In this document: in pieces, positions 26,155 to 34,347 of the stretch
Layout: each line of letters opens with the position of its first letter
Numbering within the stretch: the first letter of the stretch is position 1
Assembly: GCF_003473485.1 (NCBI RefSeq)
Contig: NC_053042.1
Coordinates: 18,620,501-18,684,500 of the forward strand
Length of the DNA stretch: 64,000 bases
Direction: 5' to 3'
Origin: Medicago truncatula
Taxonomy: Eukaryota; Streptophyta; Magnoliopsida; Fabales; Fabaceae
Translations under genes and position numbers: made by a program
The notes under the pieces: generated by a model
Databases searched by the model: none
Told to the model about the DNA's origin: nothing
Seen by the model: the letters and a program-made list of their open reading frames with translations, nothing else

Positions 26155-27750
26155 TGTAACGCCCTATTTCTATTAAAGCAATAAAACACGCGAATAATAT
26201 AATATTCAAGAAATAGACGCCGCATCTTCAACAAAATGCAAAACAACATGCATGTATAAAAATTCTCAACAGTTGCAGCGGATATAAATCATACACCTCA
26301 AAGTATACATGTCATGATATCGAATACATCATCATAAAATTCTCCAAAACGTAAATACATCCAGGATAGACAATCTAAGATAAATCATAAGACAGACACC
26401 TAGATCAGAGCCTATCCTAGACTCTAAGGAAACTGATACCGAAGATAGCTCCCGATATGCAATCACTCACCGAAGCAACTAATCATGCACGTCGTCTACC
26501 CATCCATACAGACAGGTAGGCGGTCAAAACCACTAGGGGGTAAGTTTTACATCAATCATAATCAATAAAATAAATTTGAACATAAATGAATCATTTCAAG
26601 TTCCAAATAATTAACATAAATAATTAATCTCAATAATGATTCATAATGATAAATTCAAATATCACAATCAATCACTCACATCCACAAGTATGTCAATTAT
26701 TTCACATTTAGGACTCATGCCACAATATGATATGTCCCTCGACACAACACATAAATGCATGCGGTAGCGTCGTCGCCAATGTCTAGGTCGTCACCCCATG
26801 ATGCCAACAGAACACCATAATCACCTCAATTGGATATAAAATCTGTCACCATCAGTCATGAATGCATGAACATATGACTCGACAACAATGCATATGTTCA
26901 CACAAACCATTCACTACATTGGATATAAAATTCGTCACCATCAATCATGTATGTATAAACATATATCTCAACAACAATACATATGTTCACACAAACAATT
27001 CACCACAATCTCACCAAACACTTAGCATATATGCATTCACCAACAATCCACCATCACATGTCATATATGCACTCACCAACAATCCACCATCACATGTCAT
27101 ATATGCACTCACCAACATTTCACCATCATCATTCAATATCAATACATGAATTTCCACACTTCAAGTAAAGATCAAATACAATAATATTATGATGAACATC
27201 ATATCCAACACTTAATAAGTCACTCACATAACTTCATTTAACCTTACAAAGCTATTCACAAAGATTTACAAGTTAAACGGCTTTAAAGAGTCATTATCGA
27301 CAAAGTCTGTATCAAGTGGCAAAACGGCCAACATTGATAATTTTCAAAGCTAGGTAACTTAATCAAGTTTTAAAACCTACAAATTCATCTTAATCAATCA
27401 TGTAGTCATGAGCTTAAGCCACTTACGAACTATTAAACATTAGTTCAAAGATTAGCTTAAGTTCGTATGAGAAAACCCAAAGTTCATGTATTCCACATTC
27501 CCACCCAAAGTGACGTTTGACATGATTAAGACATTAAACCACTATACAAGCCTTGCCTAGGTCCACTTGGATTGTAGACTCAACTTGTAATCCATTTTAG
27601 TTCACAAAAGTCCATTTCCGGTAAAATCCAAAAGTTACCCAAAAGTTCAATTTTCAAGCAAAATAGAAAATCCCAAATTCGATTGAGTAAATCATGTTCC
27701 AGCAGGTTTAGGAGTACAAACAAAGATTAAACAAGTTGAAAGAATCATTT
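26155..27750. mobile_element. Probable LTR fragment
   Basis: Begins TGTAACGCCC, like the LTR at 42961, and contains imperfect tandem units of about 60 bp (around 26840-27000: 'catgaacatatgactcgacaacaatgcatatg') and about 40 bp (27000-27125). No matching CA end or target duplication was found before repeat B at 27757, so the far end is truncated or undefined and the orientation is unknown. Confidence 0.5.
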
Positions 27751-30663: not shown

Positions 30664-31079
30664 TCTGGTGGTTAGTGAAAAAAGAGATATAAAGGTTAAA
30701 AAAACTTTTTCTAATTCTCTTTTTCACTTCGAAGTTAAGGTATTTTACCAAGTGATTGACACACACCTTCAAGAACTTAATAATAAATCTATAGAGGTGA
30801 GTAGTGAATTGCTTATTTGTGTAGAAGGTTTACATCCAAAAGATTTCATTTTTGCATTTGATAGGGAGAAGTTTATTAGTTTAGCTTGATTTTATCCATC
30901 AATATTTTTTCTTTATATTCTCTTCGATGTCAACTTCGACATGCTAGTTTGACTTCTTGTGAACAACTTTCTAATTTAGAAAGGACCGGTGATCTTTCAA
31001 AGAAGTTGGTGGAAACTAGAAAACTTATTACTAATCCAATGTATTTACTTTTAAAGTTAGCATTTAGTATTAGAATTCT
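30664..31079 (+). pseudogene. hAT transposase relic, left part (DUF4371/TTF type)
   Basis: Translation gives FYQVIDTHLQELNNKSIEVS, SELLICVEGLHPKDFIFAFD, REKFISLA(stop)FYPS, then LSNLERTGDLSKKLVETRKL and LLLKLAF. This is the region before the C-terminal dimerisation domain of plant hAT-like 'TTF-type zinc finger' transposases. Stops and a frameshift break it. It resumes at 34138 after an inserted element. Confidence 0.75.
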
Positions 31080-31774
31080 GCTCTTCACCCTGCACATTTT
31101 GCTCGCACCCTGCAGCCATGCCAAAAATACTCTTGCGCAAGTTAACTAGTGCAAGTGTTAATCACTGCCACTTAACTAACGTTGCGTGAGTTAATTAGCG
31201 CAGCGTTAGTTAACTCACGCTACGTGATGTCTTAAACAAGGCAGAACACCTCATTTCTCATATAAAATCTCAAAAATCTCTCTCAAATCACCCAAATCCA
31301 AAATTCCTTCATGTTCAAATCAAACAATACTCCAATAACAAGTAAGTTTTCATGATCAAACACCCTTAACCTTTTATGTTTATATGTTATATTTTTCTCA
31401 TAAATTAGAAATTTTTTAGATCTAGAGTTTGTTTAAATTTTGGTGCTTTTGGCAAGAAATCATACAATGTTTTCATGTAAATGACTTGTGTTGCTTAAAT
31501 GTTTAGATGTTTGCATCTTTATGTTGTAGTTTTGAGTTTTAAAGAATTTTTTTAGACTAGGGTTTGTTTAAATTTTGATTTTTTTGCAAAAAAATGATAC
31601 AATGTTACATGCAAATGACTTATCTTGCTTAATTGTGTTTGGATGTTTGCATGTTAATGTTGTAGTTACGAGTTTTAGGGTTTATGTATAATTTGCACTC
31701 CAAGTGTTTGATGAATTGTTTGAATGAGCTTTTCATTGATTGTTTTTAATTTCTTATTGTGTAGATTTGAAGCA

Positions 31775-32044
31775 ATGGTCGGGTGGATCGACGTTCATGC
31801 ACAATTCAACGGTGGAGAACCGCAGAGGTTGAAGGTTCGGTGTCTTGGTGTAACGTTAAGAGGTTTAAAGGATGAACTCACTGAATTCAACCAAGGAGTT
31901 AACCCCAGAGACACAAGGAGGGTGGAACACGTTCGGTATAAACGTTCAACGCTCGACGAGGGGAGAGTATCATTCACTTGGGTGGAGTTAAAGAACGACG
32001 AAAACGTGACGAGCATGTTTTGGGAGCACATCATGTTCCAGTAG
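31775..32044 (+). CDS. Small ORF inside TIR element, function unknown
   Basis: Eighty-nine codons from ATG (MVGWIDVHAQFNGGEPQRLK...), preceded by an intron-like TTGTGTAG acceptor. It resembles, in my judgement, the N-terminal region of plant Mutator-related proteins (a short ubiquitin-fold-like segment), but I cannot name a family with confidence. The stop at 32042-32044 may be a nonsense change, since the frame continues plausibly for 25 codons (IDMRVTLLSSTEDIIKGLIP) to a second stop at about 32122. No transposase core follows, so the element is non-autonomous. Confidence 0.45.
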   Translation: MVGWIDVHAQFNGGEPQRLKVRCLGVTLRGLKDELTEFNQGVNPRDTRRVEHVRYKRSTLDEGRVSFTWVELKNDENVTSMFWEHIMFQ

Positions 32045-32137
32045 ATCGATATGCGGGTGACATTGCTGAGCTCAACTGAAGATATCATCAAAGGTTTGAT
32101 TCCGCCAGAAGATCGTCATTAGGTACCGAATGCATGC

Positions 32138-32463
32138 ACCTTCCAACTAAAACTTTTGTGTTCCTCTGGATGAGGTAATTCAAACTTGCCAAACGACAAG
32201 TCCTCCGCATTCGCCCAACATTCATGTTTTTTCTTTGAAAGGATTAAATTCTTGTTAGGCTGGTTTAAATGAAGGTATTGAAGTGTCATGAAATGAACCT
32301 CATTTCGTTGGCACTTGAATACCATCATCTAAAGCAAGCATAACAAAAATTTATTCTTTTCAAAGGAAAAGCAAGAACGCCGGGCGAAATGTTTGAGTCT
32401 TGTTGTTTGGCCAGTTTGAATTTACCCCATTCAGAGGTAACACAATTGTTGTAGTTGGAAGGT
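32138..32463 (+). repeat. Long hairpin 1 (about 326 nt)
   Basis: Starts ACCTTCCAACT and ends AGTTGGAAGGT. Arms pair with mismatches and bulges to an apex near 32298 (GAAATGAACCTCATTTC). Downstream of the small ORF, so it could be transcribed in the same RNA. Confidence 0.75.
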
Positions 32464-32717
32464 ACAAACGTTCGGTATAAACGTCCAAAAGATCAAGGAA
32501 TGAATGCACCTTCCAACAACAACAATTGTCTTTCTTTGAATGAGGTAATTCAAACTTGTTGTTGTTTGGCCAGTTTGAATTTACCCCATTCAGAGGTAAC
32601 ACAATTGTTGTAGTTGGAAGGTACAAACGTTCAGTATAAACGTCCAAAAGATCAAGGAATGAATGCACCTTCCAACAGCAACAATTGTCTTTCTTTGAAT
32701 GAGGTAATTCAAACTTG
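32400..32717 (+). repeat. Two tandem 159-bp units, each a miRNA-like hairpin
   Basis: The units at 32400 and 32559 are nearly identical. Each holds an arm with 'acaattgttgtagttggaag' (about 32418-32463; 32577-32622), a loop of about 43 nt with 'cggtataaacgtcc', and a complementary arm with 'ccttccaacaacaacaattg' (about 32507-32551; 32666-32710). The fold-back is about 134 nt, within the size range of plant MIRNA precursors. Confidence 0.8.
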
Positions 32718-32913
32718 TTAAATGGAAGGACTCCAGCATTCGATGAACATCTTAAATGATGGTATTCAAGTGTCAAAGAATGCACCTCATTCTTTTGACA
32801 CTTGAATATCGTCATTTAAAATGCTCATCGAATATTGGAGTCTTGCAGTTTAACAAGTTTGAATTTGCCCCATTCAAGGGTAAGATAATTGTTGCAGTTG
32901 GAAGATACATTCC
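32661..32913 (+). repeat. Long hairpin 4 (253 nt)
   Basis: The arms 32661-32782 and 32788-32913 pair nearly perfectly around a five-base loop. The inner 68 bp of stem (for example 'tattcaagtgtcaaagaatg' against its complement) has few mismatches. The left arm overlaps the right arm of the second 159-bp unit, so alternative folds exist. Confidence 0.8.
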
Positions 32914-33374
32914 GGAATGTAATGTAATGATAGGAACATGTATTAGTGAGAATCAGCTATATAAGTTATTTATTGACTTTTTATTCGAATTTATTCAATA
33001 CACGTCGCATAATTTTTATTTGAATTCACGCTCTCGCAATTTTTATTCTAATTCAAGCTGAATTTATTTATTGACTTTATTCAAATTATTTTATTTCCTT
33101 TATTCTAAATTATTTTATTTACTTTATTCTAATTTATTTATGCACTTAAAATAAATATTGATTCAATATTATTCATAAAAAAATACAAATATAAATAAAA
33201 GTAAATGAACTAAATTAATATTTATTTATTAAATACAACATTAGAAAATAAAAGCAAATATAAAATAAAAAGGAATAAAAAAATTGAGGCATATAACAAC
33301 ATCTTATTTTATTAACAGAATTCATACAATTCAATAATTGATACGATAATTTATTCGAATTCACTAAATCTACT

Positions 33375-33567
<193 letters not shown>

Positions 33568-34137
33568 ATAGTGAGCAGCCTTCTTGGCAAAAATACATCA
33601 TCAACTCTTGAGCTAAATTTAAATATGTTTTTTTTTTATACCCCAAGAAGAATCTCTTTACCCACAGTAAAAAGTTTATGGGGTTAAAAAAGCAGATAAC
33701 TTATCCCAAGCGTCGATCACTTCCCCAAGTCGGCTACTTACTGTTTTACCCCGAAGAAGATTGATCACTTTTGCCCCCAAAGAGAATATTGAAAGAAAAA
33801 AAAAAAGAGAAATAGAGGGAGAGAGTGAGGAGGGGGAGAAAGTGAGATGGTGTGAGGAATTAGGGAAGTATGGAGGGATATTTATAAGTGGGAATGGTAG
33901 TATAGGTTGTAAACACCATTAATATGGTCAAAAAACGTGTAAAATTTGGCAAAAAAACGTGTGAAATGAATGTTGAAAACTGACCAAAGACCCAAGAACG
34001 TTTGTTCTTCAGAGCTAACCACCAGCCAAGCTGCGTGATTTAACTCGTGCATAAGACACTGGTGCCTGACTTAACTAACGCAAGAACATATTTGACATGA
34101 CTGCAGTGGCACGAGCCAAATATGCAGGGTGAAGAGC

Positions 34138-34347
34138 AATATTCTTAGTATTACATGTAGCAGCTGCATCTTTTCAAAGGAGTTTATCCACTATAAACTT
34201 TATGATGAATCAATTGCACGACCATATGGGAGGTGAATTTTGGAATGATTGTCGGACAACATATATAGTGATACATTGCATAATGTTGAAAATGAAAAAA
34301 TCTTAGAACACATTTAAAACATGAAGCCATACCGAGAGCAATTGTAA
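34138..34347 (+). pseudogene. hAT transposase relic, right part (dimerisation domain)
   Basis: Continues the relic at 30664: LVLHVAAASFQRSLSTINFM, then QLHDHMGGEFWNDCRTTYIV and MKPYREQL at the stop. This is the hAT C-terminal dimerisation motif (the usual A-T-VERAFS...MGDEWLND pattern, degenerate here). Frame changes are present. Confidence 0.75.

What the first reader, a model, noticed from the sequence alone, without database searches (positions are those of the whole stretch)
32138..32913. Cluster of interlocking long hairpins inside a TIR transposon: candidate siRNA/miRNA locus
Within 780 bp there are four fold-backs: a ~326-nt hairpin, two tandem 159-bp units each folding as a ~134-nt miRNA-like precursor, and a 253-nt near-perfect hairpin with a five-base loop. 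Arms of neighbours overlap, so several folds compete. All share the CCTTCCAAC...GTTGGAAGG module and lie downstream of a small ORF. This looks like repeated inverted duplication of one module, the proposed route for young MIRNA genes or hairpin siRNA loci such as Mu killer. Any regulatory role is inference.
Basis: partly seen in the sequence, partly recalled or inferred. Interest (0 to 1): 0.75.

Follow-up and report, generated by a model that had tools for sequence, protein, structure and literature searches.

The report
Transposon-borne double hairpin, miR2592 type
The hairpin cluster is an old, slightly rearranged copy of a two-hairpin module carried by many jumping genes of this plant (almost certainly barrel medic), and small RNAs listed in print as separate microRNAs (miR2592, miR5554) match sister copies of that module.

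Summary
In detail: 32100-32950 folds at -413 kcal/mol (20 shuffles: mean -197.5, sd 7.9). It lies in a 3,072-bp Mutator-like (MULE-type) element (31073-34144) with a 9-bp target duplication. The genome holds at least 150 places of the adjoining 115-aa ORF. Of 36 relatives fetched, 28 were chosen by the hairpins and 8 by the ORF alone; those 8 also carry hairpin sequence. Two tandem hairpins (hp1 ~325 nt, hp2 ~250 nt) follow the ORF; the extra 159-bp unit was seen only in the window copy.

Small RNAs in print match sister copies with 0-1 mismatches: miR2592 (hp1), miR2592bl (the fold between hairpins) and miR5554 (hp2). These separately named microRNAs are thus parts of one transposon module. 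The module occurs behind unrelated MULE ends (holding the B/C-end modules together is rejected, AU p=0.0013). Its arms co-change (25 shared double changes restore pairing; 0-9 when partners are slid), but event counts show no significant strand bias, so RNA selection is not separated from DNA-level arm correction.

Best reading: a MULE-borne hairpin small-RNA source acting mainly on its own family; this copy is decayed and probably weak or silent. Transposon-derived MIRNA is a known kind; the ORF-linked, end-swapping cassette looks new in the papers searched.

The parts
31064..31072 (.). left target-site duplication TTAGTATTA (9 bp)
31073..31105 (+). left terminal inverted repeat, end type A (29 of 33 nt match the right one)
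31775..32122 (+). 115-aa ORF (plus stop) shared by the family; premature TAG at codon 90 in this copy
   Evidence: 150 of 150 scored genome places match, 841 first-look candidates
32138..32463 (+). hairpin 1 (hp1), MIR2592 type; outer complement extends to 32124-32477
32400..32558 (+). first 159-bp tandem unit (hp1 3' arm + spacer + hp2-type 5' arm)
32559..32717 (+). second 159-bp tandem unit, 99% identical; not seen in the 36 other fetched copies
   Evidence: alignments, module lengths and motif counts
32497..32630 (+). 134-nt hairpin across the two units
   Evidence: -59.9 kcal/mol
32408..32429 (+). site matching miR2592bl with 2 mismatches
32567..32588 (+). second site matching miR2592bl with 2 mismatches
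32661..32913 (+). hairpin 2 (hp2), MIR5554 type, 253 nt, 5-nt loop
32744..32765 (+). site matching miR5554 with 5 mismatches
33570..33742 (-). Rfam MIR2670 match inside the same element (123.1 bits, cut-off 117)
34112..34144 (-). right terminal inverted repeat
34145..34153 (.). right target-site duplication TTAGTATTA

Best explanation
The cluster is a decayed copy of a two-hairpin module that sits directly behind a 115-aa ORF in a large set of Mutator-like elements. SHOWN: element ends and 9-bp duplication; the shared ORF-hp1-hp2 order in many copies; the match of sister copies to sequenced small RNAs named miR2592 (hp1), miR2592bl (fold between hp1 and hp2) and miR5554 (hp2); co-changing arms; occurrence behind unrelated MULE ends. 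INFERRED: a transcript running in the ORF's sense direction through the hairpins is diced by Dicer-like enzymes into 21-22-nt small RNAs, which act mainly on the many sibling transcripts and copies with the same arms, so that the family silences or damps itself. In this copy the 159-bp duplication adds one more competing fold; its divergence from the cloned small RNAs suggests little or no output of its own.
For: Element and duplication; a complete recent relative with another end type, L038 744-3235, has its own 9-bp duplication. Copies: ORF 150 of 150 scored places, each covering at least residues 6-114; all 8 relatives chosen by the ORF alone carry hairpin sequence (five of them are close kin). 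Small RNAs: miR2592bm/bn exact in L013, L014, L029 and at 8 genome places, 35 with at most 1 mismatch, reversed control 0; miR2592bl exact in L033 and at 15 places, control 0, and a 130-nt inter-hairpin fold cut at that site in L033 gives -69.3 kcal/mol, the printed value, although the printed locus is on another chromosome; miR5554 at 36 places with at most 1 mismatch, 12 exact, control 0. Of 24 distinct sequences of that paper's Table 2 only miR2592a, bl, bm/bn and miR5554 match the window or the 40 loci at 2 mismatches or fewer. 16 of 35 miR2592bm places have a same-strand ORF match ending 244-246 nt upstream, none an antisense one nearby. 17 of 36 miR5554 places have one 415-506 nt upstream (only 21 of 150 ORF rows used, picked by eye). 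L048, the probable MIR2592bn locus, has an ORF match over its whole length and B/C flanks.
Against: No small-RNA or transcript data could be examined; this copy matches no tested cloned small RNA exactly (2-5 mismatches). Event-level G-U versus A-C changes show no significant strand bias (private 39 v 47; shared 45 v 35), so selection for the sense RNA fold is not shown. For miR2592a, bl and bm no complementary site outside the hairpins was found in the window or in one large relative except a 5-mismatch site at 27474 (miR5554 not tested). miR2592a matches exactly only on the strand opposite the ORF, in L024. In L047 and L048, the probable MIR2592bm and bn loci, a frame search found no recognisable ORF protein: the ORF there is partial (L047) or has indels (L048), and L047 has none of the tested flanks.
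Confidence: 0.68

Rival explanations
1. Passive palindromes: the arms are kept alike by DNA-level correction (template switching or conversion between arms) and small RNAs are a by-product without function for element or host.
For: Within-copy arm identity only slightly exceeds cross-copy (hp1 0.880 v 0.861; hp2 0.869 v 0.848); no significant event-level strand bias; in hp1 several co-changes need transversions and a run of them lies at neighbouring positions; blocks of 42 nt (5' arm) and 44 nt (3' arm) of hp2 are present in L017, L023 and L026 and absent in the other copies shown.
Against: The module has stayed together with the ORF behind unrelated ends, which suggests more than an incidental palindrome; a cell-level G-U excess exists (374 v 196), though shared descent explains it.
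Confidence: 0.22
2. A true MIRNA family with host targets.
For: Defined 21-nt species with star reads in print (PMC3160423 Table 2); miR2592 abundant in alfalfa (PMC6311939 passages).
Against: Many near-identical transposon copies; several mature positions and three alternative folds; PMC4212123 discarded the family by a filter against probable siRNAs; host targets were not examined here beyond the window.
Confidence: 0.07
3. The hairpins serve the element as structure: transcript 3' end, RNA protection, or a DNA cruciform used in transposition.
For: Constant distance of the hp1 small RNA from the ORF end (244-246 nt in 16 places); both strands fold about equally well.
Against: Hairpins lie internally, not at the ends; no known MULE needs this (recalled knowledge).
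Confidence: 0.03

Closest known systems
MIR2592 (M. truncatula)
   Same: hp1 of sister copies contains the exact mature sequences; energies are close to the printed ones (L047 -102.9 v -104.4; L048 -109.9 v -111.8, with my own cut points; L033 130 nt -69.3 v -69.3)
   Different: window copy has 2-4 mismatches to the mature forms and an extra 159-bp unit
MIR5554 (M. truncatula)
   Same: hp2 5' arm; exact at 12 genome places, 24 more with 1 mismatch; L040 1 mismatch
   Different: window copy 5 mismatches; named as a separate family in print
Mutator-like elements, incl. MuTAnT of M. truncatula (PMC4486113, passages)
   Same: TIRs and 9-bp duplication
   Different: MuTAnT's TIR mask is GGGGTTTGCTAGAACA and its fold-back is the TIR pair itself; here the ends differ and the hairpins are internal, behind an ORF
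Mu killer (maize; recalled, no call)
   Same: long MULE-derived hairpin as possible silencing trigger
   Different: Mu killer is one rearranged locus; here the hairpins are a standing part of many copies
MITE/MULE-derived MIRNA genes (review PMC10004981, passages)
   Same: Mutator-type source of small-RNA hairpins in dicots incl. M. truncatula
   Different: those are short elements whose inverted ends form the stem (in part recalled); here a two-hairpin cassette lies inside a 2.5-3-kb element with an ORF; miR2592 does not occur in that review's main text

Membership tests
Mutator-like element | terminal inverted repeats | tested here: met
   29 of 33 nt
Mutator-like element | 9-bp target-site duplication | tested here: met
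   window TTAGTATTA; L038 TTGAAGAAG; L015 AATGCAATG read by eye from printed flanks
Mutator-like element | MULE transposase in the element or an autonomous partner | tested here: inconclusive
   ORF matches no Pfam model; one larger relative has a plant mobile domain gene, PF10536 1.1e-29; transposase genes were not searched systematically
MIR2592 | mature 21-22-nt sequence in the hairpin arm of this copy | tested here: not met
   window: bl 2 mismatches (twice), a 3, bm 4; sister copies exact
MIR2592 | homologous precursor hairpin | tested here: met
   alignment of 34 copies and L047/L048
MIR5554 | mature sequence in hp2 5' arm of this copy | tested here: not met
   window 5 mismatches; relatives 1-2 in the fetched loci, 12 exact genome places
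plant miRNA (annotation criteria) | precise excision of miRNA/miRNA* from this locus | not testable with these tools
   no small-RNA reads available
Rfam miRNA families | score above gathering cut-off for the hairpin cluster | tested here: not met
   none at gathering; best below it MIR807, 48.2 of 113
Mu killer-type locus | single rearranged trans-silencing locus | tested here: not met
   hairpin sequence also in the 8 of 8 relatives chosen by the ORF alone and at many other genome places

The most novel reading that the evidence does not exclude
The 115-aa ORF plus double hairpin is a portable cassette that has been swapped between Mutator-like elements with unrelated ends and is kept foldable in the lineages that amplify: a transposon-borne small-RNA gene through which the elements regulate their own family, and the common source of small RNAs now filed as miR2592 and miR5554.
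Probability: 0.3. Interest if true: 0.75.

Novelty: new variant of a known kind. Interest (0 to 1): 0.5.

Why it matters
It joins microRNA names that stand apart in print (miR2592, miR5554, and in the same elements MIR2670 and MIR2629) to one set of transposons, which bears on expression and target studies that treat them as host microRNAs. The shared ORF-hairpin unit behind different ends, in a family that includes copies about 98% identical, makes the question whether transposons carry their own small-RNA brakes directly testable with existing small-RNA libraries.

Tried and rejected
Rfam: nothing above cut-off on the cluster itself; many weak long-hairpin matches (MIR807, MIR6140, MIR8007, MIR1435) judged fold-driven, since both strands and several unrelated families score alike. 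ORF as the front part of a MULE transposase: my first impression, not supported (no Pfam match; profile comparison with one protein beside L040, probability 1.5%, E 0.033). Sense-strand RNA selection from the G-U excess: 374 v 196 cells shrinks to a non-significant difference when inherited states are counted once; an earlier count, 441 v 166, was biased by choosing pairs from an RNA fold. Other arm copies in the window: only 13-nt exact matches at E 0.6. MuTAnT as the family: different ends. Letter search in the T alphabet gave five papers, unrelated by title. An Acacia small RNA named after miR2592bj matches no locus at 2 mismatches or fewer (PMC3981707 passages), so not every sequence filed under miR2592 need belong here. 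The paper that probably first named miR2592 (recalled) is not held. Rows dropped: L009, L011 and L042 from the 34-copy alignment (incomplete module); four copies (L017, L023, L026, L043) from the hp2 pair counts, of which L043 turned out to have the short form. ORF selection: pN/pS 0.46 over 12 intact copies, weak evidence because the copies were picked as intact and five are close kin. A genome search for the MULE transposase family did not complete.

Full report
WHAT IS THERE. The region 32124-32913 contains hp1 (32138-32463), two 159-bp tandem units (32400-32717) and hp2 (32661-32913). The stretch 32100-32950 folds far better than shuffled sequence on both strands. It lies in a 3,072-bp element, 31073-34144, whose ends match at 29 of 33 nt and which is flanked by the 9-bp duplication TTAGTATTA, the anatomy of a Mutator-like element. 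A 115-aa ORF ends at 32122, just before hp1; in this copy it has a stop at codon 90.

WHERE IT LIES. The window is G000:C1:18620501-18684500 of a 429.9-Mb assembly with 42 contigs. I infer Medicago truncatula from size, eight long contigs and exact matches to its small RNAs; the tool does not name it.

COPIES. The hairpin query gave 425 first-look candidates, of which 40 were scored; the listed matches (list cut) group by eye into 40 places. The ORF gave 841 candidates; all 150 scored match, each over at least residues 6-114. I fetched 36 relatives: 28 because the hairpin query found them (L009-L036) and 8 because of the ORF alone (L037-L044). All 8 of the latter carry hairpin sequence too, seven across both hairpins; five of the 8 are close kin. 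Of all 36, 33 reach from the first 150 to beyond position 560 of the 682-nt module and were aligned with the window (34 rows); L009, L011 and L042 do not. hp1 has both arms over 100 nt in 34 of 34 rows, hp2 in 25 of 30 rows examined; L020 and L039, for example, lack the outer 3' arm of hp2. The 33 stretches are 524-708 nt long, and neither they nor the three dropped copies show the 159-bp unit twice, so the duplication appears private to the window copy. The window module is at most 90.5% identical to the 33 others; the partial L011 reaches 94.4% over 395 nt. It is an old copy. L037-L041 have modules 96-99% identical to each other; over their longest matched pieces of 1.2-2.4 kb L037, L038, L039 and L041 are 97-99% identical, L040 92-95%, so part of the family moved recently.

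ENDS. Two sets of ends carry the module: type A (window; GAATTCTGCTCTTCACCC...) and types B and C (GAAAATTGTTGTTGACACA..., GAGAATTGTTGTTCCCACAT...). B and C flanks are partly alike; A flanks share nothing with them on the same strand at E<1e-3. L038 is a complete type C element with the duplication TTGAAGAAG. On a tree of the 34 hairpin modules (17 A, 17 B/C) the end type changes four times, three of them forced by starred branches, against 11.6 in shuffles; holding the B/C modules together is rejected (AU p=0.0013). So ORF and hairpins have been exchanged between elements with unrelated ends. End types of L029-L036 rest on short flanks, and recombination inside the module could also disturb the tree.

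SMALL RNAS. A search by letters of the arms found one paper, PMC3160423 (passages and its section 7 seen). Its Table 2 lists miR2592a, bl, bm, bn and miR5554a-c with star reads. I tested the 24 distinct sequences of that table on the window and 40 loci: only miR2592a, bl, bm/bn and miR5554 match at 2 mismatches or fewer. miR2592bm/bn is exact in L013, L014 and L029, bl in L033, a in L024, there on the strand opposite the ORF (shuffled control mean 0). miR5554 is within 1 mismatch in L040 and 2 in five others. In the whole genome: bm 8 exact, 35 with at most 1 mismatch; bl 15 exact; miR5554 12 exact, 36 with at most 1 mismatch; reversed controls 0 in all three. 16 of the 35 bm places have a same-strand ORF match ending 244-246 nt upstream, none an antisense one within 2 kb; the ORF list was cut at 150 of 841 candidates, so this is a lower bound. 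17 of the 36 miR5554 places have an ORF upstream, 16 at 415-424 nt and one at 506 (with 21 of the 150 ORF rows picked by eye). L047 and L048 agree with the printed MIR2592bm and bn loci in chromosome, order and roughly in energy. L048 has an ORF match over its whole length, with indels, and B/C flanks; L047 has part of the ORF and none of the tested flanks; a frame search recognised the ORF protein in neither. A 130-nt stretch of L033 that pairs the hp1 3' arm with the hp2 5' arm gives -69.3 kcal/mol, the printed value for miR2592bl; the printed locus is on chromosome 4, L033 on C5, and the printed energy comes from another program. So hp1, hp2 and the fold between them have each been catalogued separately.

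WHAT OTHERS SAID. PMC4212123 (passages) counts 64 miR2592 genes and also lists the family among those discarded because under 20% of their places fold as precursors, probably siRNA. PMC6311939 (passages) reports miR2592 as abundant in alfalfa. [quoted passage not shown] truncatula. Of 24 papers that hold both 'miR2592' and 'Medicago' I saw passages of four (PMC3160423, PMC4212123, PMC6311939, PMC3981707); two papers hold 'miR2592' with 'transposable element', both among these; the 20 listed of 91 papers in the search with Mutator, MULE and MITE do not contain miR2592. None of the passages places it in Mutator-like elements. The library lacks most subscription papers, and supplements were not readable.

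ARM EVOLUTION. Own arms pair slightly better than arms of different copies (hp1 0.880 v 0.861, 460 of 561 pairs; hp2 0.869 v 0.848, 266 of 300 pairs). Double changes shared by two or more copies give a Watson-Crick pair in 25 of 34 cases, private ones in 11 of 32 (Fisher p=0.0027). With partners slid by 1 to 6 positions either way the shared count is 0-9; the pairs were taken from the consensus of the same copies, which favours the unslid version somewhat, and related copies are not independent. So the arms change together in the lineages that multiplied. This can be selection for pairing or DNA-level correction between arms. The strand test does not decide: G-U against A-C events are 39 v 47 private and 45 v 35 shared. 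The larger excess in raw cells (374 v 196) comes largely from shared descent.

MECHANISM. The simplest model: transcription through ORF and hairpins, dicing of whichever stem forms, and small RNAs that match many sibling copies. Steps after the DNA are inferred. The ORF has no Pfam match; pN/pS is 0.46 among 12 intact copies. A larger type C relative carries a plant mobile domain gene upstream (PF10536). Transposase genes were not searched systematically.

VERDICT. The locus is an old member of a known kind; the ORF-linked cassette that changes ends is the part that looks new.

Noticed in passing
window 33570-33742 (-): Rfam MIR2670 match inside the same element; 9 further relatives with A-type flanks also reach the cut-off (L011, L012, L013, L017, L019, L023, L025, L027, L028), so MIR2670 too is a piece of these elements.
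   Followed up: partly
L015 3368-3439 and 6031-6102; L022 6206-6277; L024 6058-6129: Rfam MIR2629 matches about 55 nt inside the ends of B-type elements: this miRNA family too is a piece of these MULEs.
   Followed up: partly
window 33378-33563: A (TC)n run of 186 nt inside the element; alignments of several relatives skip from 33388 to 33568, so it looks like an expansion in this copy.
   Followed up: no
window 31929-31949, 32468-32488, 32627-32647: A 21-nt piece of the ORF recurs in the spacers between hairpins (95% and 90%), a trace of how the spacer arose.
   Followed up: no
L045 + L037 (C8:18270600-18276600): A larger type C relative carries a plant mobile domain gene (PF10536) upstream of ORF and hairpins; its left end was not found.
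   Followed up: partly
L017, L023, L026: hp2 has 42 extra nt in the 5' arm and 44 in the 3' arm: arms gain or lose sequence together.
   Followed up: partly
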